Shown here: in pieces, positions 39,127 through 53,870 of the stretch
Numbering within the stretch: the first letter of the stretch is position 1
Layout: each line of letters begins with the position of its first letter
NCBI RefSeq assembly: GCF_018135625.1
Contig: NZ_CP073078.1
Span: 2,512,501-2,576,500, forward strand
DNA: 64,000 nucleotides
Source: Phenylobacterium montanum
GTDB taxonomy: Bacteria; Pseudomonadota; Alphaproteobacteria; Caulobacterales; Caulobacteraceae
Direction: 5' to 3'
The notes under the pieces: generated by a model
What the model saw: only the letters and a program-made list of their open reading frames with translations
Told to the model about the DNA's origin: nothing
The model's database searches: none
Translations under genes and position numbers: made by a program

Positions 39127-39969
39127 TCATTGAGCGGGCCTCCTATCCCGTGGAGGCGCAAAAAGTGGGCTTCGCAGCGCATCGGCACGGCTTTCAGCGC
39201 GCAAGCTTGCCGTGTCCCGACGGGCCGTCAAAAAGCTCAGACCAGCACGGTCAGAGTTCAGCGCTGGAGACCCCGGCGCTGCAAACAATCTGCGGATAGG
39301 GCGCTTCCCAGCTTGTTCATTCGCCGTCCATTCCGCGCCGCCCGCCCCGTCCAAAGGTGGCGACCCCACGCGCGCGGAAATGCCGGCCGACGACCTGGTG
39401 CGTACAAGGAGACCCCATTCCTGCGGCGAGGCCCGACGCATCTCAATCCAAGAAATGTCGCCGATGTCGATCAAGGCGGCGAGGCGCTCAAGGTAGCGGA
39501 CCGTCTCGTCTGGCAGAGGCCTTGCTCCCGACCGGAAGGCTTCCCATCGCGCCGGCCCGGCATTGTAAGCGGCCAGAAATCCAGGCGAGCCATAGCGATC
39601 GAACAGCTGGCGCAGATAGGCCGCCCCGGCCAGGACGTTGTCGCGAACATTGAACGGATCGGCGCCCAGGCCGAGTTCGGCGCGCAGGTCGGCGAAGGTT
39701 GTCGGCGTCACCTGCATAAGGCCGATGGCGCCGGCGGACGACACGGCGCGTGCATCGCCGGCGCTCTCCACGTGCATGACGGCCCGCAGCAGAGGGATCG
39801 GCGCCTGGAACCGCCGCGAGGCTTCGGCGATGGCGAGCGAAGCTGCGCCTGCGCCAGATATCGGCGGTGAAGCTGCGCCGATCTCGCACGCCGCTACCGC
39901 GATAGCCGGGGCGGCCAGCAGCCAAAGCGCAGCGAGCAGAACGGACCGGAAGGGAGGGGTGGGACCCAT
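39127..39969 (-). CDS. Lytic transglycosylase (conjugation-associated)
   Basis: A 280-residue secreted transglycosylase. Signal peptide: SVLLAALWLLAAPAIAVAAC. The SLT domain has the catalytic Glu68 in LRAVMHVESAGDARAVSSAG, then AIGLMQVTPTTFADL and FLAAYNAGPARWEA. It would open peptidoglycan for a transfer channel. It starts directly after traF on the same strand. C-terminal 100 residues are unconserved. Confidence 0.9.
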   Translation of the reverse strand: MGPTPPFRSVLLAALWLLAAPAIAVAACEIGAASPPISGAGAASLAIAEASRRFQAPIPLLRAVMHVESAGDARAVSSAGAIGLMQVTPTTFADLRAELGLGADPFNVRDNVLAGAAYLRQLFDRYGSPGFLAAYNAGPARWEAFRSGARPLPDETVRYLERLAALIDIGDISWIEMRRASPQEWGLLVRTRSSAGISARVGSPPLDGAGGAEWTANEQAGKRPIRRLFAAPGSPALNSDRAGLSFLTARRDTASLRAESRADALRSPLFAPPRDRRPAQ

Positions 39970-39970
39970 G

Positions 39971-40486
39971 TCAGGCGCCTCTTCGGATCCAGATCGGGCG
40001 CGCGCGGCCGATGATGTTGCGAGCCGAAACCGGGCCGAAGTAGCGCCCGTCGAGGGAGTCGCGAACCGATCGATTGAGCAGGAACACCTGGCCCTGGCTG
40101 AGGGCGATGCAGCCCTGCCAGACTGGCAAGGTCCGCCCCATTCGATCCCGCGCCAGGGCCCATGCAGCGGCTTTCGCATCGACGCTCACCAGGGCGCCGA
40201 TCCGGCAGACGGTTTGCCCAGGGCCGGCGGCGATGGTCTTCACCAGCGGCACGCCGACCGGCAGATAGCGGCGGTTCGCCAGAAAGGTCGCAAGGCCCGC
40301 TGGCGGGTCGAACACGACGAAATCTCCGACCGTCGGGCGCGCCATGGGATCGACCTGGTAGAGCCCGATCGGAACGCTGGCGCTCGCATTCCACAGCAGG
40401 AGGGGCTTTGGGTGGAACCACAGCCCGACGCTCATGAGACCGGCGCCGGCTGTGGTCATGGCCAGCCGCATTTGAACCGTCTTCAT
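39971..40486 (-). CDS. traF: TraF-like S26 signal peptidase
   Basis: A 171-residue S26-family peptidase with one N-terminal membrane segment (LAMTTAGAGLMSVGLWF). The nucleophile Ser is in NASASVPIGLYQV and the general base Lys in VPLVKTIAAGPGQTV. This is the TraF type that matures conjugative pilin-like proteins. ATG 40486 overlaps the stop of the DUF2840 gene (ATGA). It is part of the conserved block DUF2840, traF, transglycosylase, relaxase seen in rhizobial-type integrative elements. Confidence 0.88.
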   Translation of the reverse strand: MKTVQMRLAMTTAGAGLMSVGLWFHPKPLLLWNASASVPIGLYQVDPMARPTVGDFVVFDPPAGLATFLANRRYLPVGVPLVKTIAAGPGQTVCRIGALVSVDAKAAAWALARDRMGRTLPVWQGCIALSQGQVFLLNRSVRDSLDGRYFGPVSARNIIGRARPIWIRRGA

Positions 40487-40959
40487 GGCGTGATGACCCG
40501 TCGGCCGATCCAGGCGGCGTGGCGGCACGGGGTGTAGTCTCGGGGCTCATCGCCCGCGGCGAGGCGCGCATGGACGTGCCGCCAATGGTCCGGACAGGCG
40601 TCCTTGGGATCGACGCCGAGCGCTTCGACCTGGTCGACGGCGGCGAGCACGCGCTGGACCTTGGGCCAGCCGTGAACGCGCAGCAGGCTGACGCCGCCTG
40701 GGTCCACCCAGGGGACGGTCACGATCGCTTCGCCCGGCGCGGGGGCGATCAGGATGTCGATGCGCGAGATGGCGGCGCCAAAGTCGTTCGCGGCCCAGCG
40801 CACGACGGCGAAGACGTCACCCGGCGCGAACCAGAGCGCACGCCGACGACGGTCCAGCATCTCTTCCTGAACAGAACGGCCGAAGCGGATCCAGCGCTCG
40901 ATGCGCTCAGGGACCTGGAGCAACTCGACCCGGGTGAGATGTGAAGCGGCCGGTTTCAA
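40483..40959 (-). CDS. DUF2840 protein of integrative elements
   Basis: A 158-residue DUF2840 protein: TRVELLQVPERIERWIRFGR, EEMLDRRRRALWFAPGDVFAVVRWAANDFG and ISRIDILIAPAPGEA are the conserved blocks. The start is a TTG at 40959 that overlaps the repA stop (TTGA), so translation is coupled. The family is found almost only in conjugative or integrative elements of alphaproteobacteria; molecular function is unknown. Confidence 0.82.
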   Translation of the reverse strand: MKPAASHLTRVELLQVPERIERWIRFGRSVQEEMLDRRRRALWFAPGDVFAVVRWAANDFGAAISRIDILIAPAPGEAIVTVPWVDPGGVSLLRVHGWPKVQRVLAAVDQVEALGVDPKDACPDHWRHVHARLAAGDEPRDYTPCRHAAWIGRRVITP

Positions 40960-42017
40960 GGCGCGCCATCCTCGTCGGAGGGCCTAGGCGATGGCGACAG
41001 GCGCGCTCTACTGAGCCGGCCAGAACGGCGAAGAACGTAAGGGTTAGACTCTTTGTTAGAGTCTAGGTTAGCGCGCCGAATTTGTGTGGCGACTCTGGGC
41101 GTTAGGCCCCGTTCGGGTTCCTGATGGCACGATAGGGTGGTTCCCGATAGCACGCGAGCTGGAGTTCCCGATGGCACGAGGCCATCCACAGGCGCAGCGG
41201 ACTGAGCCGGCTCGAAGGCCAGGAAGAACCGCCGCGCCGCATCGACCTCGATGAACAGCTGATAGCCTGGGAGGGGCTGGCGCCTGACGATCTCGCGCAG
41301 CTCGAAAGCGAAGCGCTTGAACGGTGACAGCGCACCGGATTTCTGATGCAGGTGGACAAGGTCGAAGCGCCAGCCCTGCGCCTGGCGCCCGCCATGTTTG
41401 CGCACGAGCCGATAGAGCCAGCGCTCGAGTCCACTGGTCAGGGCGAAGTAGGTGCGATCGATGGTGAGCACCAGGCGCTCATCAAGCACGGCGCCGTAGA
41501 ACCAGTCCGGAAGGATCAGTTCGACGCCGAGCGGGCGCCCGGCGCGGTCGAGCCGTTCCGTCCATTCGTTGAGCCACGAGAAGCGGTGCAGGCGCCGTCC
41601 CTCCGCCTGGCGAATGGAGGTGGCGATGGTGGTGGACTGCAGGCGATCGAACGCCGCCTTGATGCGGACGTAGTCGCGCACGGAGGATCGGCGGCCGATG
41701 AAGCGGAGAATCTCGTATGGCGTGGCGGTCATCAGCCGCGACGTCGCAAGGCCCTGGTCGCGCGCCTCGACGATCTGCGAGGCCGCCCAGATCAGGACAT
41801 CGGCGTCCCAGATGGTGGCCATGCCATGTTCGGGCACCGCCTCGACGCGGATCACGACTGGGCCGCTGCGAAAGTCGATCGGCTGCAGGCGCGGCGTCTT
41901 GGCCAGGGAGAAGAACGGATAGGCCATCAGGTCCTGAAGGTCGCGCGGCGCAGGCGTCCCCGGACGAGGCGTGAAGCGGCGCAGCGGTTCGGCGGGGGGC
42001 AGGAAGTTGCGCACGGG
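40956..42017 (-). CDS. RepA-type replication initiator protein
   Basis: A protein of about 353 residues of the plasmid replication initiator A group: MAYPFFSLAKTPRLQPIDF, IWDADVLIWAASQIVEARDQG, RLMTATPYEILRFIGR, LLRP-type winged-helix elements (FDRLQSTTIATSIRQ, FSWLNEW) and LTSGLERWLYRLVRKHGG. GTG 42017 is the most plausible start, 8 bp after the upstream stop. The 3' part of the gene contains three iteron-like repeats and an inverted repeat that look like DNA signals. In the usual gene order a parA gene follows repA; here it is missing. Confidence 0.82.
   Translation of the reverse strand, partial: PVRNFLPPAEPLRRFTPRPGTPAPRDLQDLMAYPFFSLAKTPRLQPIDFRSGPVVIRVEAVPEHGMATIWDADVLIWAASQIVEARDQGLATSRLMTATPYEILRFIGRRSSVRDYVRIKAAFDRLQSTTIATSIRQAEGRRLHRFSWLNEWTERLDRAGRPLGVELILPDWFYGAVLDERLVLTIDRTYFALTSGLERWLYRLVRKHGGRQAQGWRFDLVHLHQKSGALSPFKRFAFELREIVRRQPLPGYQLFIEVDAARRFFLAFEPAQSAAPVDGLVPSGTPARVLSGTTLSCHQEPERGLTPRVATQIRRANLDSNKESNPYVLRRSGRLSRARLSPSPRPSDEDGAP
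41045..41065. repeat. Perfect inverted repeat in the repA 3' end
   Basis: TAGACTCT (41045-41052), TTGTT spacer, AGAGTCTA (41058-41065), flanked by GGTTAG on both sides. It lies in the repA coding frame near the end of the gene (NLDSNKESNP). It is of the size of a protein-binding site. Confidence 0.6.
41116..41179. repeat. Three iteron-like direct repeats in the repA 3' end
   Basis: GGTTCCTGATGGCACGA (41116-41132), GGTTCCCGATAGCACGC (41139-41155) and AGTTCCCGATGGCACGA (41163-41179) repeat with 23- and 24-bp periods, about two helical turns. Such phased repeats next to a replication initiator gene resemble iterons of a replication origin, or binding sites for RepA autoregulation. Confidence 0.7.
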
Positions 42018-42024
42018 GGGCGTC

Positions 42025-42312
42025 TCAGCGGACCACAAGACCGCGGAGCGAGGCCGACCCCGGCGTTTGCGGCTTAGCCGGCAGGACGCGCTGGCCGGTC
42101 TCGTCCGAAGTCGAGGATTTGGCGCCGCGGTCGACCCAGGCCTGCAGATCCTCGATGCGGTAGACCACCCGACCGCCGATCTTCGAATAGCGGGGGCCGG
42201 TGCCATAGGTGCGATGCTTTTCGAGCGTGCGCCCGGAAAGACCTAAAAAGCGCGCCGCCTCAGGCGTGCGCAGGCAGCGCGGCGGGATGCCGGGAATGGC
42301 GCCATTGGACAT
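42025..42312 (-). CDS. RdfS-like excision factor / helix-turn-helix protein
   Basis: A 95-residue MerR/AlpA-type helix-turn-helix protein: RCLRTPEAARFLGLSGRTLEKHRTYGTGPRYSKIGGRVVYRIEDLQAWV covers the winged-helix fold. This is the size, sequence type and gene position of the recombination directionality factor RdfS of the symbiosis-island family of ICEs (upstream of rep/transfer genes and downstream of the FseA-type activator). It probably promotes excision together with the tyrosine recombinase at the other end. ATG 42312 is chosen; the frame upstream is not conserved. Confidence 0.82.
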   Translation of the reverse strand: MSNGAIPGIPPRCLRTPEAARFLGLSGRTLEKHRTYGTGPRYSKIGGRVVYRIEDLQAWVDRGAKSSTSDETGQRVLPAKPQTPGSASLRGLVVR

Positions 42313-42445
42313 GAAGCGAGCCTTCGGTGTTTGACGGCGCCGCAAGGGGGCGCGCGGCGTTCGAGGGCGAGATTGGCGTAGCAGGCTGACCGCGAGGCGG
42401 GTCGAAAAAAGCCCTGCCGGCTTTCGACCCGGCGAAGGCGACATT

Positions 42446-43016
42446 TCAAACGGCCAGCAGCCTGCGATAACCGCCGGCCACCATGGCCTGGCCGTCACGG
42501 ATCAGGCGCGCGGTGCGGCTTTTCAGGTGGTGGTCGTCGAAGGCCGCGCCGGGCGGGACCGCCGAGCGGCCGAACAGGGCTGCGGCGATATCGCGCCGGC
42601 GCGCGCCTGAGGCCCTGGCGTCGAGCGCCCGCAGCATCAGGACGAGGCGCTGGCGCTGGAGTTCGGTCAGTCCATCCTTGGGCCCAGCGGCGCTTCGCGC
42701 CGTCAGCGCACGCCAGAGGCGCGCGGCGCTAGCCAGGCGGACCGTGAAATGGTCATCCAAGGCGATGACCACGGCGATCGGCTGGCTGGCTGCAAGACCG
42801 GCCGGCGCCACGGCGACCACGGGATCGGACCGCTCGCCGAAGGTCAGATAGCGGCCGTCCGCCGCGATACGGTCATCGAGCGGCGCAAGGCTGGCCAGGC
42901 GAAGCGCAGCAAGCCCGGCGGGATCGCCCGCGAGCCGCACGGTGCGAGGGTTCGCCTCGGCGCGCCAGACGACGCCGGCGTCGGCGAAGGCCAGGGCCGG
43001 GTCAGCCGGGAAATCG
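42446..43016 (-). CDS. DUF2285 protein, C-terminal half of an FseA-like activator
   Basis: Open frame with the DUF2285 pattern: DFPADPALAFADAGVVWRAE, LAGLAALRLASLAPLDDRIA, RHYLTF-type strands, DGLTELQRQRLVLMLRALDA, RRRDIAAALFGRSAVPPG and DDHHLKSRTARLIRDGQAMV. It lacks a convincing own start: the frame opens with an unsupported GTG at 43069, while the DUF6499 frame upstream runs into it in the -strand order DUF6499 then DUF2285. I set the boundary at the frame junction. Joined by a +1 shift the protein would have 248 residues, as in FseA of Mesorhizobium ICEs, which activates rdfS; rdfS lies directly downstream here. Confidence 0.8.
43002..43016 (-). other. Candidate +1 ribosomal frameshift site
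   Basis: At the end of the DUF6499 frame the codons CGA TTT CCC GGC TGA become GAT TTC CCG GCT GAC after a +1 slip, which continues straight into the conserved DUF2285 sequence. CCC-G is a known type of +1 slip position for proline tRNA, and the stop codon follows two codons later. Programmed +1 frameshifting between the same two domains is established for FseA of ICEMlSym R7A. Confidence 0.65.
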
Positions 43017-43193
43017 CAGGCCCCAGGCCTCGCAGAGATTATCGGCGGCGCCGGCCAAGCCGCGCGCACTGGCGCGCCAGGCTTGGCGATAGCCTGGATT
43101 GCGACGCAGAAATTCCCAGGCGAGGCCGCACGCCGGCAGGGCGCGGAGCCGCTGGTAGACCGCCGCGTCCTGCCAATCCGTAGGGGTCGTCAC
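43002..43193 (-). CDS. DUF6499 protein, N-terminal half of an FseA-like activator
   Basis: A 63-codon frame: WQDAAVYQRLRALPACGLAW, EFLRRNPGYRQAW, LCEAWGLRFPG then TGA. This matches the DUF6499 (transcriptional regulator) domain that is fused in many proteins to DUF2285. GTG 43193 has GAGG at a fitting distance. Its last codons (CGA TTT CCC GGC TGA, stop at 43002-43004) overlap the DUF2285 frame, which is +1 relative to it. The protein would be either a short stand-alone form or the front half of a frameshift product. Confidence 0.8.
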   Translation of the reverse strand: MTTPTDWQDAAVYQRLRALPACGLAWEFLRRNPGYRQAWRASARGLAGAADNLCEAWGLRFPG

Positions 43194-43381
43194 GGGACGC
43201 CTCGCCAAAAGCGCGCCCTGGTTGAGCGCCGGGCGAGGTTCGCCACACACGGCGTGGACGAGTAGCCGGCCGAGCCCGAACAGGTGTTCGGCCTTACCGA
43301 ACACCCGCCGCCCCAGCGGCGGCGCTATTGCGTTCAGTTGGCAGGGAGGGCGCCCGCTCCTGGGAGCGGGCGCCCATGTCG

Positions 43382-43705
43382 TCAGTCCTTGTTGGACTTG
43401 GAGGGGCGGGACCAGATCAGGTTGTGGGTCTCGCCGGTCTCGTCCGCGAACAGGTTGGCGAAGATGGGTCCGGTGAAGCTCGGATCGTCCAGCTTCAGGC
43501 CGAGATAGTCGCGGCCCTCGTTGGAGCGCTTGCTCCAGGCGGCGCCGATCTCGGCCCGGCCGACGAACACACGGTGGGTGGGGGCGCTGTCGCCTGAGCG
43601 GCTGGTTTCCGGAACGATGCGCACGCCCTTGGCCTGGACACTGAGGGTGACGATTTCGCCGGTGTACTGGTCGCCGGACTTGGTGAAGGTGCCGATGGTC
43701 GCCAT
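43382..43705 (-). CDS. DUF736 protein
   Basis: A 107-residue DUF736 protein: TIGTFTKSGDQYTGEIVTLSVQAKGVRIVPE, HRVFVGRAEIGAAWSKRSNEGRDYLGLKLDDPSF and IFANLFADETGETHNLIWSRP. The family is encoded on conjugative elements of alphaproteobacteria and is very abundant there; function unknown. AAGGAGA precedes ATG 43705. It is preceded by a 201-nt structured leader (43706-43906) that has a relative in front of the DUF2493 gene. Confidence 0.88.
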   Translation of the reverse strand: MATIGTFTKSGDQYTGEIVTLSVQAKGVRIVPETSRSGDSAPTHRVFVGRAEIGAAWSKRSNEGRDYLGLKLDDPSFTGPIFANLFADETGETHNLIWSRPSKSNKD

Positions 43706-45231: not shown

Positions 45232-46173
45232 TTAGGCGCCGCCTCGCCTGCGAAAGTCGAACACCGGCACGCCGAGCTTCCTGGCCTTGTCGGCGAGGTT
45301 GTCCTGGATGCCGCCGCCAGGGAAGACCACCACCCCGATCGGGCTTTGCGCCAGGACCACATCGTTGCGTTTCATTGGCGCGGCGCGTTTGGAGTGCGTC
45401 TTGAAATCCGGCCGGAAGGCGACTTCGACGACGCCCCGCGTCGCGGCCCATTTGGCGGCGATCAATTCGGCGCCGGTGGAAGCGCCCCCGTGCAGGAGCA
45501 CCATGTCGGGATGCTTGGCATGCACCCGGTCCAGCACGCTCCAGATCAGGTGGTGATCGTTGCAGTCGGCTCCGCCGGAGAACGCGATCCGCGGTCCCTG
45601 CGGCAGCATGATCTCGGTCTCGGCGCGGCGGCGAGCGGCCAGGAAATCGCGGCTGTCGATCATGGCGGCGGTCAGCGTGCTGCGGGTCACGAGCGAACCC
45701 GCGCGGGGGCGCCAGGCCGAGCCGGTGTGCGCTTCGAAGTGCTGGATCGCCAGTTCGCGCATGGACTCGAGGGCGTTGCGCCGGTCGATCAGGCCCCGTC
45801 CCTCGTCGAGGAGGTCTTCGAGTTCGACCGAGCGAACTTCCGAGCCGTCCTGCTCCGACTGGCTGCGCTTTTGCGCATGCTCGTTCTGGTCCAGGCGGCG
45901 TTCGAGCCGATCGACCGTTCGATGAAACAGATTGACGGCGGACCAGAGGAGTTCGCCAAGATCCGTCTCCAGGCTGGTGTCGACGCAAGCCGTGACCAGG
46001 GCGTCGAAGATGTCGCTGATCGCCGCCTGAACAGTCTTTTCGTCCGGTACGCCCGCCGCATGGCCGGAAGTGTTTGAGTTCAGCCCGAACAGCTGCGCGC
46101 GATCGAGCACGGCGGCCGTTTGTGAAACCTCGTGCTCCGGCTCCTGATCGATGAAGTCCAGGGGATCGTCCAT
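45232..46173 (-). CDS. DUF2493 (SLOG/YspA-like) protein
   Basis: A 313-residue protein. The C-terminal third is a Rossmann-like SLOG/DUF2493 domain: RIAFSGGADCNDHHLIWSVLDRVHAKHPDMVLLHGGASTGAELIAAKWA and VVVFPGGGIQDNLADKARKLGVPV (the GGG-x-T/Q loop of lysine-decarboxylase-like nucleotide binders). The N-terminal half is charged and helical. Such proteins are thought to sense or process nucleotide derivatives; in mobile elements their role is unknown. ATG 46173 follows a 201-nt structured leader. Confidence 0.82.
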   Translation of the reverse strand: MDDPLDFIDQEPEHEVSQTAAVLDRAQLFGLNSNTSGHAAGVPDEKTVQAAISDIFDALVTACVDTSLETDLGELLWSAVNLFHRTVDRLERRLDQNEHAQKRSQSEQDGSEVRSVELEDLLDEGRGLIDRRNALESMRELAIQHFEAHTGSAWRPRAGSLVTRSTLTAAMIDSRDFLAARRRAETEIMLPQGPRIAFSGGADCNDHHLIWSVLDRVHAKHPDMVLLHGGASTGAELIAAKWAATRGVVEVAFRPDFKTHSKRAAPMKRNDVVLAQSPIGVVVFPGGGIQDNLADKARKLGVPVFDFRRRGGA

Positions 46174-46374
46174 AGTGCTTGCCCTTCGCGTCTGGCCGCG
46201 CCCATCGCGGCCGTTTGCGGCGCGGCGAAGAGCGGGGGCGCAGTGAACCGGCACCCCCGGCCACGGGCCGGTGGCCGGCGGCCGGAGCGGCAGCGAAGGA
46301 CGGCGTAGCCGCGCCATTTTGCCTGGCGATGCAAAGGCGGCCCTCTTTCGGCCGCCGGCGGAAAATGGCGCGGC
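46174..46374 (-). ncRNA. Structured 5' leader of the DUF2493 gene (leader family B)
   Basis: GCCGCGCCATTTT (46374-46362 on the minus strand) pairs perfectly with 46320-46308; the loop contains a 7-bp hairpin GGCGGCC/GGCCGCC (46336-46356). After it come CCTTCGCTGCCGCTCCGGCC, a GGGGGTGCCG segment and GCCGCG-ATGGG-CGCGGC before the start codon. The same order is found in the DUF736 leader, and the distance from outer stem to ATG is 201 nt in both. Confidence 0.55.
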
Positions 46375-46484
46375 GCAGCCGTTGCCGGACCGCTGCGCCT
46401 CCGCTCCGATCGCAAGCTCAAAGAAAGGCAGCATGGGGCGGTCGGGCGCGATGGCCAGCCTTATCGCCGCCAGGCCGGACGCGG

Positions 46485-47540
46485 TCAGCCCGAAATCAGG
46501 TGCGGCGCAGCAAAACGGTTCAGGTCGGCCGGGTCGATCTGGGTGGCAAGATGGGCATGGAGTCCCTTCGCGCCATGCCGGGCGAGATCGGCGTTGAAAT
46601 CATCGAGCGCGGGCTCAAGGACGAGCACACCGATTCCAGCCTTTTGCGCGCGCAAGGCCAGACGATCCGTGGCCAGGAAGCCCGCCGAATCGGCGTCGCG
46701 GGCGATGTAGAGGCGCTTCAGGCCAGGCGACCACTCGACCAGCGCGAGATGGTTGGCTGACAAGGCCGCGGCCATGGGCATGCGGGGAAGGACTTGCCGC
46801 AGAGACAGGACGGTCTCGATTCCCTCGCCAACGGCCATAACCTCATGGGCCAGGCCGAAACGAACAGCGTTGCCAAGCAGACGGCCCATGGCCCGGCGCG
46901 GTGATGGCACGTCGGCCTTGTCCTTCGTGCGCCAGTCGAGCCAGGTCCGGTGAACACCGCAAATCTGGCCCTCCAGATCGGTCACCGCGGCGATCATCGC
47001 CGGCGTCACCCGCCGCTCGCCCGGGAGGGCCTCGCCAGGTTCCGCGACGCGCCAGCACCGTGGATGGAACCGCAGGCTCGCGCAGCCCCGCAGATCAAGT
47101 ATCCCGCGCCCTCGCAGATAGTCGGCCGCAAGCGTGCCTTGGATCGGCCCCGCCATGGCGAAGAGCCGTCGGCTCGCCGCCGAGCGATCCTTGGCCACGC
47201 TTGCGTACCCGCTCGCCTCTGTGATCGGCGTTGGTTCTGCTTCGCCAAGGAACCTTCGGGCTTCGGCCAGGACCTCGTGAAGGCTCGCCAGGGCGAGCCG
47301 CCGGCCGATCAGATCGAGCAGATCGCCATGCTCGCCGGTCGCCGCGTCGGTCCACTTGCCGGCCGGCGCGCCGTCATGCGTCTTGTGCAGCCGAACATAG
47401 AGGCTGCGCCCCGGTGAATTGGCGACATCGCCGACCACCCAATAGGCGCCTGCCCGCCGGCCCTTGGAGAGGTAACAGCGGCACACCGCCTCGGCGCGAT
47501 CCGCCAGACGCTTCGAAAGTTCGGCTGCGCTGTCAATCAT
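46485..47540 (-). CDS. Toprim-domain primase-like protein
   Basis: A 351-residue protein of the conjugative-element Toprim group (TraC/DUF7146 type). The N-terminal part resembles the inactive CHC2-like primase segment (CRCYLSKGRRAGAYWVVGDV, TGEHGDLLDLI), the middle DLRGCASLRFHPRCW and DLEGQICGVHRTWLDW are conserved blocks, and the Toprim domain carries MAVGEGIETVLSL (Glu) and LYIARDADSAG (D-x-D). It probably primes or processes transferred DNA. It lies downstream of the ParB-like gene on the same strand. Confidence 0.85.
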   Translation of the reverse strand: MIDSAAELSKRLADRAEAVCRCYLSKGRRAGAYWVVGDVANSPGRSLYVRLHKTHDGAPAGKWTDAATGEHGDLLDLIGRRLALASLHEVLAEARRFLGEAEPTPITEASGYASVAKDRSAASRRLFAMAGPIQGTLAADYLRGRGILDLRGCASLRFHPRCWRVAEPGEALPGERRVTPAMIAAVTDLEGQICGVHRTWLDWRTKDKADVPSPRRAMGRLLGNAVRFGLAHEVMAVGEGIETVLSLRQVLPRMPMAAALSANHLALVEWSPGLKRLYIARDADSAGFLATDRLALRAQKAGIGVLVLEPALDDFNADLARHGAKGLHAHLATQIDPADLNRFAAPHLISG

Positions 47541-47612
47541 GAGCCGGCCCTCAAAATAAACTGGGCCCGCCGGCGGCGGCGGGCCCAGGGAATAGTCCGG
47601 ATGCTCTGTCGG

Positions 47613-49685
47613 CTATTCCGCCGCGATCGGGGGGGCTTCGATCGGGACCTCGGCATCATCACCGGCTGCTACGGCTTCGACCATGGCCGTTTCGCGGCCG
47701 TCGGCCGCCATCTCTTCGACCGGCACGGCCAGGGCCACCCGGACCCAGGCCGGCGCGCGGCCGGGGGTGCGAAGCGGCTCCGGCAGCCAGCCGAGGCCAG
47801 CGAGCAGGCCCTCGGCCGCCTCCGCCATATCTGTCTTCTTCAGCGGCTCGATCCGGCTGGCCGCCGCCGCGCCGCAGGCCTCGGCCACTGCGCCGAGGAT
47901 GCGGGCCTTGGAGACACGGCCCAGGAAGGAGGAGACGGTCGGCGCCCAGCCGGCGGCGACCATGTCGAGATCCAGGGCCTCGGCCAGGCGATCGGCATGG
48001 GCGAGCGCGCGGGGTTTGCGATTATAGACCTCGTAGACGGCGTTGACCGATTGGGCGACGCAGTGGGCGAACAGGGCCTGACGGCTGTCGCTGTCGAAGG
48101 CCTGGAGCGCGCCCCAGAGATGTTCGGCCTCGGTCGGCAGCGCCTGAACCCAGGCCTTGCGCCGCGTCTCGATGGCGACCGCGGCCGAACAGTCCGCAAG
48201 GTCCGGCGCCTGGGCGGAAAAGGTCGTGTGTTTGACGTCCAGTTCCAGGCAGCTGTCCTGGCCATAGCGGTAAAAAAGCTTGAGGCACAGGGCGTGCAGC
48301 GCCGCGAGGAAGGCGACGTCCGGGTTGGCGCCGAGGGCTTCGCGAAGCGCCACTGTGCGGTGAGCGGTCAGTTCGGTCAGTAGCCGGTCGGGGATCGGCC
48401 GGACGCCCTCATCCTCTTCGGCATCGACTGCGCTGGCCGGCGGCGCTACGCCTTGCTGATCGCCTTGGCCGTCCTCATCTTCGGCGGCGCCGCCGACCGC
48501 GGCCACCGGCGGCTCATCCTCGGGACGAACATAGCCGCGCTCGACCCGCAAGGCGCCAGAACCGTCGATGCTGACGAAGGCGCCGGCGATGGCGATGTCC
48601 GCGGGATCGAAGGTGGCGGGCCGTTCGTCGAACGCCGCCAGCGCCGCCTCCAGTTCGCCCAGCCGCTCATCGACTTCGGGCGGCAGGTCTTCGGTGTCCG
48701 CCCACTTCGCCTCCAGTTCGTCGAGTTCGGTCTGCAGGGCTGTCCGCGCGGCCTCTTCCTCTTCGGTGAGCGGCGGTACCTCGCCCCGCAAGGACCGCAG
48801 ACCGAAGGTGCGGTCGTAGGGCAGGTCTGATGCGACCTCGATCCACCGCCACCCCTCGGCGCGGACGGCGTTGGCCTCCCGGTCGAGCTTCTCGGCGACC
48901 AGGCGGTCCAGCAGGGCCGCATCCTGCAGCCAGCCGCCGTCATCACGTTCGAAGAGGTCGCGCAGGATGTCGCCGCCGGCCTCCAGATAGGCTTCAGGCC
49001 CTATGAACAGCACCCGCTTGTCGCCGAAGCGGACCGCGCCCTCCGTGAGGATGCGCCGGATCATATAGCCCGGCATGCCGTGGGATTGGCGAAGGCGGTC
49101 GAACACCTCCTCCTGGCGCTGATGGTCGGCGCTGACCGTGAAGGCCATCAGCTGCTCGAGGGTCATGCCGTCTTCGGCATAGACCTCCAAAAGCTTCGGC
49201 GAGACAGAGGCCAGGCGCAGACGTTGCTTGACCACGGCTGCGGTCGTGAAGAACGCCGCCGCAATGTCCTCCTCGGATTGGCCCTTTTCCCGCAGCGCCA
49301 GGAACGCCCTGAACTGATCCAGCGGATGCAGTGGCGCGCGCTGCACGTTCTCGGCCAGGCTGTCTTCCTCTGCGACGCCACCTTCCCGCACGACGCAAGG
49401 CACCGGCGCCGTCTTGGCCAGCCGCTTCTGCTTGACCAGCAGCTCCAGCGCCCGGTAGCGCCGACCACCCGCCGGCACCTCGAACTTGCCGGTCTCCTGG
49501 CCGTCGGCGCCGACGACGGCGCGCACGGTCAGGCTTTGCAGCAAGGTCCGCCGGGCGATGTCCTCGGCCAGCTCCTCGATGGAGACGCCGGCCTTGATGC
49601 GCCGCACGTTCGACTGGGACAGCACCAGCTTGTTGAACGGAATGTCCCGCGAGGCGGAGAGGACGATCTTGGAGGATTGGGTCAT
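47613..49685 (-). CDS. ParB/Spo0J-domain protein of conjugative elements
   Basis: A 690-residue protein. ParB/sulfiredoxin-like nuclease-CTPase core: IPFNKLVLSQSNVRRIKAG, IEELAEDIARRTLLQSLTVR, AGGRRYRALELLVKQ, EEDSLAENVQRAPLHPLDQF; then a KorB-type helix-turn-helix (SEEDIAAAFFTTAAVVKQRLRLASVSPKLLE). The acidic C-terminal 400 residues are typical of this long mobile-element subgroup. ATG 49685 follows a leader of family A. The role may be partition, gene regulation or DNA processing; no ParA is present. Confidence 0.88.
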   Translation of the reverse strand: MTQSSKIVLSASRDIPFNKLVLSQSNVRRIKAGVSIEELAEDIARRTLLQSLTVRAVVGADGQETGKFEVPAGGRRYRALELLVKQKRLAKTAPVPCVVREGGVAEEDSLAENVQRAPLHPLDQFRAFLALREKGQSEEDIAAAFFTTAAVVKQRLRLASVSPKLLEVYAEDGMTLEQLMAFTVSADHQRQEEVFDRLRQSHGMPGYMIRRILTEGAVRFGDKRVLFIGPEAYLEAGGDILRDLFERDDGGWLQDAALLDRLVAEKLDREANAVRAEGWRWIEVASDLPYDRTFGLRSLRGEVPPLTEEEEAARTALQTELDELEAKWADTEDLPPEVDERLGELEAALAAFDERPATFDPADIAIAGAFVSIDGSGALRVERGYVRPEDEPPVAAVGGAAEDEDGQGDQQGVAPPASAVDAEEDEGVRPIPDRLLTELTAHRTVALREALGANPDVAFLAALHALCLKLFYRYGQDSCLELDVKHTTFSAQAPDLADCSAAVAIETRRKAWVQALPTEAEHLWGALQAFDSDSRQALFAHCVAQSVNAVYEVYNRKPRALAHADRLAEALDLDMVAAGWAPTVSSFLGRVSKARILGAVAEACGAAAASRIEPLKKTDMAEAAEGLLAGLGWLPEPLRTPGRAPAWVRVALAVPVEEMAADGRETAMVEAVAAGDDAEVPIEAPPIAAE

Positions 49686-49700
49686 GGACTTCGAGCTCCA

Positions 49701-49770
49701 CGACGGGCGGCCGGGAGACCTCTCTCGGCCTTTCGAACCCGTCACAGAGCTCAGCCCACCCTTTCCTCTC
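49701..49770 (-). ncRNA. Structured 5' leader upstream of the ParB-like gene (leader family A)
   Basis: On the minus strand the element starts GAGAGGAAAGGGTGGGCTGA and ends GGCCGCCCGTCG. GGGTGG near the 5' end can pair with CCGCCC near the 3' end (one G-U), enclosing a hairpin built on CCG-A-GAGA-GAGG-TCTC-C-CGG. The DUF932 leader at 51052-51120 has the same ends and topology with compensatory differences, so an RNA structure is likely. Confidence 0.6.
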
Positions 49771-49833
49771 GAAGGCTGCAGCCGCAACGGACCTTGGCCG
49801 CGGGATCTGCTGGCGAGTCCCGCGGCGCCGGTG

Positions 49834-51036
49834 TCAGCGAACGCAGGCGAGAAGCTTGCCGGCCCGCCCTTCCAGCTCCAGACGATCATCCTGGTGTGGC
49901 TTGGTCCGAGCGAACGCGGTGATGCCCTGCACGAAATCGAACACAGACTCGGGCGGGCGTCCCTCCTCCTTCAGGACGGTGGCGATGACCTTGTCCGCTT
50001 CACCCTTGGAGAAGCCACGGGTGCGTAGGAAAGTCTTACGCTCCTCGTCCTTGCGCGCCACGATGCGGTCCCGGGCTGCGCGGATGCCTTCGACGAACGG
50101 CGTCGTCGAGGCGTTGGCGAAGCGCTCCAGCGCCGGCTCGGCCTCATGGGCGAAGCGGCTGGCGGCGAACTTGCTGTGGCGGATGGAGATCTCCTCAAAG
50201 CCCTCGGCGCCCCAGATGTTGCGGTTCATGCAGACCCCGCGCAGGTAGAAGGTCGCCATGCCGAGGGTCTTGGAACCGACCTCGGAGTTCCAGCAATAGA
50301 AGCCCCGGAAATAGAGATCCGGCTCGCCGTTCGAGAGGCGCCCAGCCTCGATCGGGTGGGTGTCGTCCACCAGGAACAGGAAGACGTCGCGGTCGCTGGC
50401 GTAGAGGGTGGTGTTGTCCTTGGTCACCTCGACGAACGGATTGTGGGTCATCGAAGACCAGTCGAGGACGCCCGGCACCTTCCAGCGGGTTTCACCGGCG
50501 CCATCGCCGGCGAGTTTCATCACCGCGCCGACCAGCTCATGGTCCCAAATGCGGCCATAGTCCGGCCCGGTGACGGCGCGAAGCTCGGTCCGCCCGTCCG
50601 CCATCTCCAGGGTCTTCACCAGCTCCGCCCGGTTGGAAAGCAGGCCGTGCTGGAGGTTGATGCCGGCCAGTGCTGCGGGCAGTTCGCGCAGATAGCCGGA
50701 CGGCGCGCCGGCCAGGCCACAAAGCTGGCCGAACGACCAATGGGTGGGCGCGAGGGGCTCAGGCGCGCCCGGTGCGATGAGGGTCAGCCCCTCGGGGTTG
50801 TCGCCGGCCGCTTCGACGCGGAGGCTCGTCGCTTCGATGGTGCGGACGGCCGCGCGTTCGGCGCGCGATCGCACCGCCTGATAGAGGTCGGTGAGCGAGA
50901 GATAGCGCTCATCGTCCGGCCGCGAAAACCATTCGGATGAGACCCGACCGATCCGCTGCCCGCGGCTGATATCGACCTTGAAGCCGCTCTGGACGGGCGC
51001 GCCTTCGCCCCACAGGGCCCTGTCGTCGTAGGTCAT
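49834..51036 (-). CDS. DUF932 protein
   Basis: A 400-residue DUF932 (DUF945-like) protein, common in plasmids, phages and ICEs: IEATSLRVEAAGDNPEGLTL, HWSFGQLCGLAGAPSGYLRELPA, ALRAVTGPDYGRIWDHELVG, LYASDRDVFLFLVDDTHPIE and FYCWNSEVGSKTLGMATFYLRGVCMNRNIWG. The molecular function is unknown; the family is thought to modulate DNA repair or replication during transfer. ATG 51036 is 15 bp after a family A leader. Confidence 0.87.
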   Translation of the reverse strand: MTYDDRALWGEGAPVQSGFKVDISRGQRIGRVSSEWFSRPDDERYLSLTDLYQAVRSRAERAAVRTIEATSLRVEAAGDNPEGLTLIAPGAPEPLAPTHWSFGQLCGLAGAPSGYLRELPAALAGINLQHGLLSNRAELVKTLEMADGRTELRAVTGPDYGRIWDHELVGAVMKLAGDGAGETRWKVPGVLDWSSMTHNPFVEVTKDNTTLYASDRDVFLFLVDDTHPIEAGRLSNGEPDLYFRGFYCWNSEVGSKTLGMATFYLRGVCMNRNIWGAEGFEEISIRHSKFAASRFAHEAEPALERFANASTTPFVEGIRAARDRIVARKDEERKTFLRTRGFSKGEADKVIATVLKEEGRPPESVFDFVQGITAFARTKPHQDDRLELEGRAGKLLACVR

Positions 51037-51051
51037 GGTTATACTCCCTAA

Positions 51052-51120
51052 TGACGGGCGGCCGAGAGCCTCTCTCTCGAGCCCAAACCTCGTCGCTGGG
51101 AACCCAGCCGCCCTCCTCTC
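51052..51120 (-). ncRNA. Structured 5' leader upstream of the DUF932 gene (leader family A)
   Basis: Minus strand: GAGAGGAGGGCGGCTGGG at the 5' end and CGGCCGCCCGTC at the 3' end. GGGCGGC pairs with GCCGCCC; inside are two hairpins, GCTGGG-TT-CCCAGC and CGAGAG-AGAGG-CTCTCG, which gives a three-way junction. It is related to the ParB-leader element at 49701-49770. The position right before the RBS (TAGGGAG) suggests control of translation. Confidence 0.62.
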
Positions 51121-51468
51121 GCCCCAGATCAGCGCCACCGCCTTGCCCGATCGCCCCAGGGCGTGCAGCAGCCCGGGGCGAAGCCCTGCAAAAGGAAAAT
51201 GAAGACCGCCAGGAGCCGCGCATGCGCGGCGGGAAGCGTCGACGGTCGGCCAGCGGCGGCCCAAAGGCCGCCCGAAGGGTCGAACCCGCAGGAGGAGCAA
51301 CGCGACGGGACCGAGCGCGACCGCTGGACGATCACCGTATAAGATCGGGCGTCATCGCCGAGCGTGGAATTGCGCCTGTTGTTTGAGGCGCGCGCACCTT
51401 TGCGAAGGCCCCTTCATAATGTAAACATCTGTTTGCGTAAACATCATTTGGCGCAAAGGGATGTTTAC
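51121..51468. other. Intergenic region with palindrome and hipB operator
   Basis: No gene is supported here. A perfect 16-bp palindrome, GCCGCGCATGCGCGGC, lies at 51215-51230, and a hairpin built on GGGCGAAGCCC is nearby (51177-51187 region). The right part (51420-51468) contains the GTAAACATC repeats described separately. Confidence 0.55.
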
Positions 51469-52441: not shown

Positions 52442-52813
52442 ATGGCCCAGGCTAAGCCGGAACACGGCGCCGTAATTGGTGTAAGGACCGAGGCTCGCAT
52501 CGACCATGCATTCGCGGACAGGGCCCTGATCACCGCGCTGGCCGCCGCGGCGCTGCTGGGGCTCGATGTCAAAACGCTGCGAGCGCTCACAGATGCTGAG
52601 GTCATTCGCGCTGTAACCGTCAATAGAGTTCGCCGCTACTCGGAAGCGGAGATCCGTCGCTATCTGATCGAAGGACCGTCAGCACCGTGTCCGTCTACAA
52701 ACCGCACACGAGCCCCCACTTCCAATACGACTTCCAGCTCAAGGGTCGTCGGTATTTCGGAACTACGGGCGAAACGTCTCGCCGCAAAGCAGAGACCTTC
52801 GAAGCGGAGCTGA
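52442..52813 (+). CDS. Excisionase-like helix-turn-helix protein
   Basis: A 123-residue protein with a compact helix-turn-helix: LITALAAAALLGLDVKTLRALTDAEVIRAVTVNRVRRYSEAEIRRYL, the MerR/Xis type in which the last segment fixes the wing. GAGGG lies before ATG 52442. The last 42 codons overlap the integrase gene in another frame. The location directly upstream of, and overlapping, the recombinase gene suggests a DNA-binding accessory factor for integration or excision. Confidence 0.65.
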   Translation: MAQAKPEHGAVIGVRTEARIDHAFADRALITALAAAALLGLDVKTLRALTDAEVIRAVTVNRVRRYSEAEIRRYLIEGPSAPCPSTNRTRAPTSNTTSSSRVVGISELRAKRLAAKQRPSKRS

Positions 52814-53832
52814 AGCGGCGCGTCCGCCTCGGCGAGCCCTTGGACAAGCCGGTCCCGACGTTCGATGTGGCGGCGGCCCGCTGGTTTTTGGAGGTCGGCC
52901 AGCATAACGCCAGCGCCAACGATGCGGAGCGGCGGCTTGCGACGGCGTCATCGCTGCTTGGCGGCCACAGACTGCTGACGGAAATCGACGGCGACCTTCT
53001 CGCCCACGCGGTCCGCAAACGCCGCGGTCAGACCACCCGCCGAGGCCGCAAGCCATCGAACAAGACCGTCAATGACGATGTCGTGCGCGCTGTGCGCCCA
53101 GTGCTCCGGCGCGCTGGACGGGTGTGGGGCGTTCGCAACCTGCCCGAGATTGATTGGGGCTCGCTGCTCCTGCCCGAGCCGAAGCCCAAGTCGCGCGAGT
53201 TTAGCCCGGCGGAGATGGAGGCCTTTCTGACGGCCCTCCCCGAGCACTGGCGCGACTTCGCCGCCTTCATGTCGCGTTACGGCTGCCGCTTAGGCGAGAT
53301 GTTCTTCAGCCTTGCCGATCTTGATCTGCAGGGCGGCCGCGTCACCTTGCGGGAGCGGAAGAACGACGAGGACCATGTCATCCCGCTCCTCCCGGAGGAT
53401 GTGAGCATGCTGGCCGCGCGGGCCAGCCGCGCACGAGCCTTGTCCAACCGCTTCGACACGGTCTGGTTTCGGGAGCTCAAGGGCGGTCGGCTGAAGGCGC
53501 TCACCTATTATGGCGCGCTGGCTGCGCTGCATAAGGCGCTCGCCGCCGCAGGCTTAAAATCAACCGGACGCCGGGCGCGTGTCCATGACCTGCGTCACCA
53601 TGCCGGCACGGCCATGCTCCGGGCGACGAACAATCTTCGCACGGCTCAGCGCCTCCTCGGCCATTCGAGCATCCAGTCGACGCTTCGCTATGCCCATGCC
53701 TCGGAGACGGATTTGCGCGAGGCCCTTGAAAAGGTGGCATTGCAAAAGTCCCGGCCCAGTCCCGATCCAGGATTTTCGGAACCCATTCAAACTATTGATA
53801 AAAATGATCAAGCGGGACGCTCGCCAAAAGCT
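52687..53832 (+). CDS. Tyrosine recombinase / integrase of the element
   Basis: A phage-type integrase. The catalytic set is Arg201 (YGCRLGEMF), His300-x2-Arg303 (RVHDLRHHAGT), His326 (RLLGHSSIQ) and Tyr335 (STLRYAHA). An N-terminal arm-binding (FQYDFQLKGRRYFGTT) and core-binding domain precede it. Start is GTG 52687. The catalytic domain ends near 53742, but no stop codon follows in frame until 55663: the frame runs through the tRNA-Leu fragment and antisense to hlyD. I place the end at the tRNA junction; in the circular form another sequence would follow. Confidence 0.88.
53804..53825. repeat. Candidate right end of the mobile element (direct repeat copy 2)
   Basis: ATGATCAAGCGGG (53804-53816), AC, GCTCGCC (53819-53825) matches 36242-36260 apart from a 3-bp insertion. 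It touches the tRNA-Leu fragment that follows at 53832. It may be part of the attachment site. Confidence 0.4.
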
Positions 53833-53870
53833 TTTAAGTCCGTTGCGTCTACCAATTCCGCCACGCCCGC
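53832..53870 (-). tRNA. 5' half of tRNA-Leu (anticodon UAA), interrupted in the anticodon loop
   Basis: On the minus strand the sequence begins GCGGGCGTGG CGGAATTGGT at 53870 and reaches the anticodon loop CTTAAAA (anticodon UAA) at 53838-53832. The acceptor 5' strand, D-arm and anticodon 5' stem (ACGGA) are intact. After the loop the required UCCGU is absent; the sequence is GCTTTTGGCGAGC, which belongs to the element. No 3' half (T-arm, CGCCCGC acceptor strand) is found nearby. This marks the integration site of the element; the fragment cannot give a functional tRNA as it stands. Confidence 0.8.

What the first reader, a model, noticed from the sequence alone, without database searches (positions are those of the whole stretch)
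43002..43193. FseA-type activator split over two frames with a +1 slip site
DUF6499 (43193-43002) ends in TTT CCC GGC TGA, and a +1 shift at CCC-G leads directly into conserved DUF2285 sequence. rdfS lies directly downstream. In ICEMlSym of Mesorhizobium loti the same two domains are joined by programmed +1 frameshifting to make FseA, which switches on rdfS and so excision. Here the same switch seems to be carried by an element in a Caulobacter-like host, without T4SS genes.
Basis: partly seen in the sequence, partly recalled or inferred. Interest (0 to 1): 0.8.

Follow-up and report, generated by a model that had tools for sequence, protein, structure and literature searches.

The report
Frameshift-made excision activator of a mobile island
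Two overlapping gene fragments here very probably make one protein when the ribosome skips a base, and that protein switches on the release of a large mobile DNA island; this switch is already known from rhizobia and is widespread, so this is a good but ordinary member of the family.

Summary
DUF6499 (43193-43002, minus strand) ends ...TGG GGC CTG CGA TTT CCC GGC TGA. A +1 shift there leads into DUF2285, giving a 248-residue FseA-like protein, with rdfS directly downstream. FseA switches made by +1 frameshifting are already described (PMC10359603: 4709 homologues, about 61% with the shift).

1. The slip is better placed at UUU_C than at CCC_G. In 54 split alphaproteobacterial homologues the second domain is always in the +1 frame. 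UUU is followed by C or U in 50 and by C in 48; only 7 of those 48 also have CCC_G. All 50 with Phe there use TTT, against 22% of Phe codons elsewhere in the same genes. The protein is the same either way.
2. A 28-bp FseA-box-like repeat (GTCGAA-N16-TTCGAC, 42428-42401) lies upstream of rdfS, at a distance conserved in relatives.
3. The "no T4SS" claim fails. A perfect 39-bp direct repeat in tRNA-Leu brackets about 378 kb that includes traG-trbBCEJLFGI and luxR/luxI. In a related genome the same backbone is contiguous; here it is split between rlxS and traG.

Frameshifting, activation and excision are inferred, not measured.

The parts
43002..43193 (-). fseA 5' part: DUF6499 (PF20109), frame 0, GTG start, with the AWEFLRRN motif; ends CGA TTT CCC GGC TGA
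   Evidence: PF20109 E = 2.2e-17
43008..43025 (-). slip region TGG GGC CTG CGA TTT CCC: SD-like UGGGG, CGA, then the UUU_C slip site
   Evidence: UUU followed by C or U in 50 of 54 split homologues; TTT in 50/50 Phe codons at this position against a 22% background
42446..43009 (-). fseA 3' part: middle region and DUF2285 / RovC DNA-binding domain (PF10074) in the +1 frame; stop at 42448-42446
   Evidence: PF10074 E = 5.1e-28; weak similarity to RovC, PDB 6xz5
42401..42428 (-). candidate FseA box: GTCGAA-N16-TTCGAC (28 bp; the dyad extends to GGGTCGAAA / TTTCGACCC) upstream of rdfS
   Evidence: same repeat type at 138-150 nt from the RdfS RxLRT motif in 17 of 41 loci; shuffled mean 0.8, maximum 5 in 300 shuffles
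42025..42312 (-). rdfS-like recombination directionality factor (HTH_17)
   Evidence: PF12728; 86% identity to the equivalent gene in relative G127
40956..42014 (-). RPA (replication initiator protein A family) backbone gene
   Evidence: PF10134, E = 2.9e-85
40483..40959 (-). DUF2840 backbone gene
   Evidence: PF11000
39971..40528 (-). traF-like conjugative signal peptidase
   Evidence: PF10502; TIGR02771, below cut-off
39127..39969 (-). lytic transglycosylase (SLT)
   Evidence: PF01464
36837..38981 (-). rlxS relaxase (start codon uncertain; the RlxS match begins at residue 53)
   Evidence: NF041267, 662 bits (cut-off 850); DUF3363
43382..43705 (-). DUF736 gene, conserved just upstream of fseA
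45232..51300 (-). upstream backbone: YAcAr/SLOG gene (45232-46434), Toprim/DUF7146 (46485-47540), ParB (47613-49889), unassigned ORF (49834-51300)
   Evidence: the first three are collinear with relative G127
52687..53850 (+). tyrosine recombinase (integrase) next to attR; its end is approximate, the open frame runs on to 55662
   Evidence: PF00589, E = 9.9e-20
53832..53870 (.). attR: 39-bp perfect direct repeat of C1:2188515-2188553, the 5' half and anticodon loop of tRNA-Leu(UAA)

Best explanation
This is a split fseA gene of an ICEMlSym-type integrative and conjugative element. Ribosomes translating DUF6499 mostly stop at the UGA. A minority slip +1 at UUU_C, where tRNA-Phe re-pairs from UUU to UUC, probably helped by the SD-like UGGGG and the CGA codon just upstream. 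They continue into DUF2285 and make a 248-residue activator. The activator binds the inverted-repeat box at 42428-42401, turns on rdfS and probably the RPA-to-rlxS genes behind it, and RdfS makes the integrase excise a ~378-kb element. That element carries its own traG-trb mating apparatus at its left end. Shown here: domains, frames, slip-site and codon conservation, box, synteny, att repeat, T4SS genes. Inferred: frameshifting in vivo, DNA binding, activation, excision, transfer.
For: Domains and frame. In homologues the second domain is in +1 in 54, in frame in 12 and in -1 in none. Phe at the site is TTT in 50/50 against 22%; CGA in 25 of 33 Arg against 12%; GGG in 37 of 49 Gly against 14%; the TTT result holds after clustering. 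In-frame homologues with Phe there mostly use TTC (4 of 5). 30 of 54 split loci have no start codon in the C frame upstream of the site. FseA-box-like repeat at a conserved distance. Collinear backbone in relative G127. 39-bp att repeat in tRNA-Leu. T4SS and luxR/luxI inside the island. Experimental precedent in ICEMlSym R7A (PMC10359603, PMC11963761, PMC5882170).
Against: No translation or transcription data exist for this strain. The SD-like stretch here is UGGGGC, weaker than the family's UGGGGG. No unusual downstream RNA structure was found. No second DUF2285 protein (QseM) was found in the genome, so the regulation is not identical to R7A. The left boundary rests on one repeat; no empty site was found in relatives.
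Confidence: 0.88

Rival explanations
1. The +1 shift happens one codon later, at CCC_G, with peptidyl-tRNA-Pro slipping from CCC to CCG.
For: CCC_G is present and yields the same peptide. CCC_U sites are known +1 sites in bacteria (PMC5009743). One split homologue without UUU has AGT CCC GGT (L070).
Against: The codon after UUU is CCC in only 15 of 54 split homologues (CGC in 26), and only 7 of the 48 UUU_C loci have CCC_G. UUU followed by C or U is kept in 50 of 54. UUU_Y is a recognised +1-prone site (PMC5009743).
Confidence: 0.1
2. Two separate proteins are made, DUF6499 alone and DUF2285 from its own start (for example GTG 43069), which may associate.
For: The C frame here is open upstream and has an in-frame GTG at 43069.
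Against: 30 of 54 split homologues have no start codon in the C frame upstream of the slip, several with a stop immediately before it. In-frame fusions exist. The codon-level conservation at UUU is not explained.
Confidence: 0.05
3. Sequencing error or a decayed pseudogene split by one indel.
For: Only one genome was examined at this exact locus.
Against: The same +1 arrangement recurs in 54 loci from many genera, with none in the -1 frame. The downstream frame is open to its end with a strong domain match.
Confidence: 0.02
4. The element is mobilizable only (an IME) and has no T4SS of its own.
For: No trb or traG genes were recognised in the window, and the genome holds other T4SS loci that could act in trans.
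Against: The traG-trb operon at C1:2215613-2203644 is inside the 39-bp att repeats, on the expected strand and in the expected order. Its TrbE is 77% identical to that of a relative's contiguous FseA-RlxS-Trb element, against 50% to the plasmid's TrbE.
Confidence: 0.1

Closest known systems
FseA (Msi172-Msi171) of ICEMlSym R7A, Mesorhizobium japonicum
   Same: DUF6499 then DUF2285, joined by +1 frameshifting; the AWEFLRRN motif; WGL encoded by an SD-like UGGGG; acts on rdfS through an inverted-repeat FseA box of two hexamers 16 bp apart, 28 bp in all.
   Different: Here fseA sits directly upstream of rdfS and downstream of DUF736, whereas in R7A it is in an operon with traI2. No QseM-like protein was found in the genome. 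The R7A SD-like stretch is UGGGGG; here it is UGGGGC.
ICEMlSym-type ICEs (rdfS, traF, rlxS, trb; IntS)
   Same: Backbone genes, trb mating system, luxR/luxI quorum-sensing pair, tyrosine recombinase at a tRNA gene.
   Different: Integrated at tRNA-Leu(UAA) with the shared 39 bp covering the 5' half of the tRNA; about 334 kb of cargo lies between rlxS and traG; no parA-sized gap between RPA and DUF2840.
RovC of Yersinia (PDB 6xz5)
   Same: Weak sequence similarity in the AWE-LRRNP helix and the DUF2285 domain.
   Different: RovC controls a type VI secretion system (PMC10359603); no frameshift is described for it there.
prfB (RF2) +1 frameshift (from general knowledge, not tested here)
   Same: Internal SD-like sequence just upstream of a +1 slip codon.
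   Different: prfB slips at CUU_U with UGA as the next codon and the SD 3 nt away. Here the SD-like stretch is about 6 nt away and the codon after UUU is a sense codon.

Membership tests
FseA family of +1-frameshifted activators | DUF6499 domain with AWEFLRRN-like motif | tested here: met
   (PF20109, 2.2e-17); AWEFLRRN
FseA family of +1-frameshifted activators | C-terminal DUF2285 domain in the +1 frame | tested here: met
FseA family of +1-frameshifted activators | Conserved slip motif after WGL | tested here: met
   TGG GGC CTG CGA TTT C in the window; UUU followed by C or U in 50 of 54 split relatives
FseA family of +1-frameshifted activators | FseA box (inverted hexamers 15-16 bp apart with two conserved central bases) upstream of rdfS | tested here: met
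FseA family of +1-frameshifted activators | Frameshifting in vivo and activation of rdfS | not testable with these tools
   needs reporter or mass spectrometry
ICEMlSym-type ICE | rdfS, traF, rlxS relaxase backbone | tested here: met
ICEMlSym-type ICE | traG-trb type IV secretion genes in the element | tested here: met
   inside the 39-bp att repeats
ICEMlSym-type ICE | Tyrosine recombinase and att repeats at a tRNA gene | tested here: met
ICEMlSym-type ICE | Quorum-sensing luxR/luxI pair on the element | tested here: met
   PF03472 with PF00196, and PF00765; control of fseA by it not tested
ICEMlSym-type ICE | QseM antiactivator (seen in R7A; not essential to the definition) | tested here: not met
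   only one PF10074 match in the genome; a very divergent QseM could be missed
Mobilizable element without T4SS (IME) | No T4SS genes between the attachment sites | tested here: not met

The most novel reading that the evidence does not exclude
The family uses a compact +1 cassette, with no evident RNA structure at the one locus examined: UGGGG, then Leu-CGA, then UUU_C. The internal SD and the CGA codon would slow the ribosome so that tRNA-Phe slips from UUU to UUC. Because CGA, UUU and UUG/UUA are strongly over-used exactly there in GC-rich genomes, the efficiency could be tuned by tRNA supply, making element excision sensitive to host physiology.
Probability: 0.2. Interest if true: 0.5.

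Novelty: new member of a known kind. Interest (0 to 1): 0.3.

Why it matters
It places a well-studied conjugation switch in a ~378-kb island with catabolic-looking cargo. It gives family-wide evidence that the slip codon is UUU_C, which can be tested with single-codon changes. It also shows that a backbone which looks T4SS-free in a 64-kb window can belong to a complete but widely split ICE. The general switch is already published, so the conceptual gain is small.

Tried and rejected
- Downstream RNA structure as stimulator: z = 0.14 and -0.64, no signal.
- Empty-site search with joined flanks: flanks are not conserved together in relatives; across the junction only the tRNA matched.
- A perfect 23-bp palindrome upstream of fseA (43305-43283), tested as a possible LuxR box: no second close copy in 536 kb and no similar palindrome upstream of luxR or luxI; left unexplained.
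- The search for related loci on genome contigs found only one relative, Bosea; the genome search with PF20109 gave the comparative set.
- The 2015 PNAS paper on R7A frameshifting and PMC4755241 are not held, so I cannot say whether UUU_C was already proposed there.
- Two of the split homologues (L118, L125) have an uncertain join; they were kept as exceptions to the UUU count.

Full report
WHAT IS THERE. The minus-strand frame 43193-43002 encodes 63 residues with the motif AWEFLRRN and ends CGA TTT CCC GGC TGA. Shifting +1 at this place gives an open frame to 42446, 248 residues in all. Pfam finds the DUF6499 model (PF20109, 2.2e-17) in the first part and the DUF2285 / RovC DNA-binding model (PF10074, 5.1e-28) in the second. 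Downstream on the same strand lie rdfS-like HTH_17, RPA, DUF2840, TraF, SLT and RlxS genes. Upstream lie DUF736, YAcAr, Toprim and ParB genes.

IS IT MORE THAN CHANCE. PF20109 was searched in 298 relatives and 385 class-wide genomes, and the fetched loci were scored for both domains. Of 66 loci with both domains placed, 54 have the second domain in +1 relative to the first, 12 are in one frame and none is in -1. The codons at the join in the 54 split loci are strikingly conserved: TGG 54/54; GGG 37 of 49 Gly (14% elsewhere in the same genes); TTG/TTA 36 of 48 Leu (11%); CGA 25 of 33 Arg (12%); TTT 50 of 50 Phe (22%). The TTT excess stays significant after single-linkage clustering at 60% or 70% identity (35/35 and 39/39 clusters with Phe there). 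Relatedness is not fully removed, so the p-values are indicative only.

WHERE IS THE SLIP. In the family UUU is followed by C or U in 50 of 54 (by C in 48), while the next codon is CGC in 26 and CCC in 15, and CCC_G occurs with UUU_C in only 7. In-frame relatives with Phe there have TTC in four of five cases, reading straight on. This favours tRNA-Phe slipping from UUU to UUC; UUU_Y is listed as +1-prone in PMC5009743. The SD-like UGGGGG in the conserved WGL codons was noted for FseA in PMC10359603. No downstream RNA structure stands out here.

SEPARATE PROTEINS? In 30 of 54 split loci the C frame has no start codon upstream of the join, and in several a stop lies just before it. Independent translation would therefore lose conserved sequence. 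The window itself does have a possible GTG at 43069, so the argument is from the family.

TARGET. Between fseA and rdfS is GTCGAA-N16-TTCGAC, 42428-42401, 28 bp. PMC10359603 describes the FseA box as two inverted hexamers 16 bp apart (15 or 16 in alphaproteobacteria) with two conserved central bases, 28 bp in all. Repeats of this kind with central CG sit 138-150 nt before the RdfS RxLRT motif in 17 of 41 loci; shuffles (scored at 140-152 nt, where 17 were also observed) gave a mean of 0.8 and a maximum of 5. The Bosea relative L012 has GTCGAA-N16-TGCGAC at the same distance.

THE ELEMENT. A perfect 39-bp direct repeat joins window 53832-53870, at the end of the integrase gene, to C1:2188515-2188553, the 5' half and anticodon loop of an intact tRNA-Leu(UAA); only the half-tRNA remains at the right end. 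The island between them is about 378 kb. Just inside the left end are a LuxR-type regulator and a LuxI-type synthase, then further in TrbI, TrbG, TrbF, TrbL, TrbJ, TrbE, TrbC, TrbB, CopG and TraG. In relative G127 the same genes form one contiguous backbone, ParB to RlxS followed by TraG to TrbI; here order and strand are the same but about 334 kb lies between rlxS and traG. TrbE is 77% identical to that of G127 and 50% to the host's own plasmid copy. 'Without T4SS' is thus true of the window, not of the element. Caveats: no empty site was found, and another integrase domain lies inside at C1:2281064, so the island may be composite.

COMPARISON. The switch matches FseA of ICEMlSym R7A in the features testable by sequence. 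PMC10359603 already reports 4709 FseA homologues across proteobacteria, about 61% with the +1 site, so this is a new member of a known kind. Differences: direct fseA-rdfS adjacency, UGGGGC instead of UGGGGG, no QseM-like protein found, tRNA-Leu target, no parA-sized gap between RPA and DUF2840. Whether the luxR/luxI pair drives fseA is not shown. The host could not be named with these tools.

Noticed in passing
L045:8847-10522 (C1:2188846-2190521): LuxR-type regulator and LuxI-type autoinducer synthase just inside the left end of the island, next to tRNA-Leu; may control transfer as in ICEMlSym.
   Followed up: partly
L045:11568-18903: Lasso-peptide-like cluster: 44-aa candidate precursor (MDRIIETNDQDLVDLGAASVETRGGPLGVGEGEGRQHIEGLADD), transglutaminase-like protease, asparagine synthase, S9 peptidase, TonB receptor.
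   Followed up: partly
window 43283-43305: Perfect 23-bp inverted repeat GGTGTTCGG-TAAGG-CCGAACACC between DUF736 and fseA, overlapping CCGAACACCTGTTCGG; no other close copy in 536 kb. A possible operator for fseA.
   Followed up: partly
C1:2938667-2940685 (L043): Second RlxS relaxase (45% identical to the first) in another island with an integrase, near a tRNA-Leu(CAA) gene, with no FseA and no trb genes seen nearby: a candidate mobilizable element.
   Followed up: partly
C2 plasmid about 49.5-58.4 kb and C1 about 1822-1830 kb (L007, L008): Two further T4SS-like clusters in the same genome, one on the 96-kb plasmid and one on the chromosome.
   Followed up: no
window 9948-32841 and L009: Island cargo looks catabolic: Rieske ring hydroxylases, cytochrome P450, aldehyde dehydrogenase, TonB receptors, several apparent short-chain dehydrogenases.
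   Followed up: partly
window 40956-40959: The roughly 1-kb gap (parA-sized) between RPA and DUF2840 in relative G127 is absent here; the two genes overlap directly.
   Followed up: no
G127:C1 (L052, L058, L063): One relative genome carries three distinct split fseA loci.
   Followed up: no
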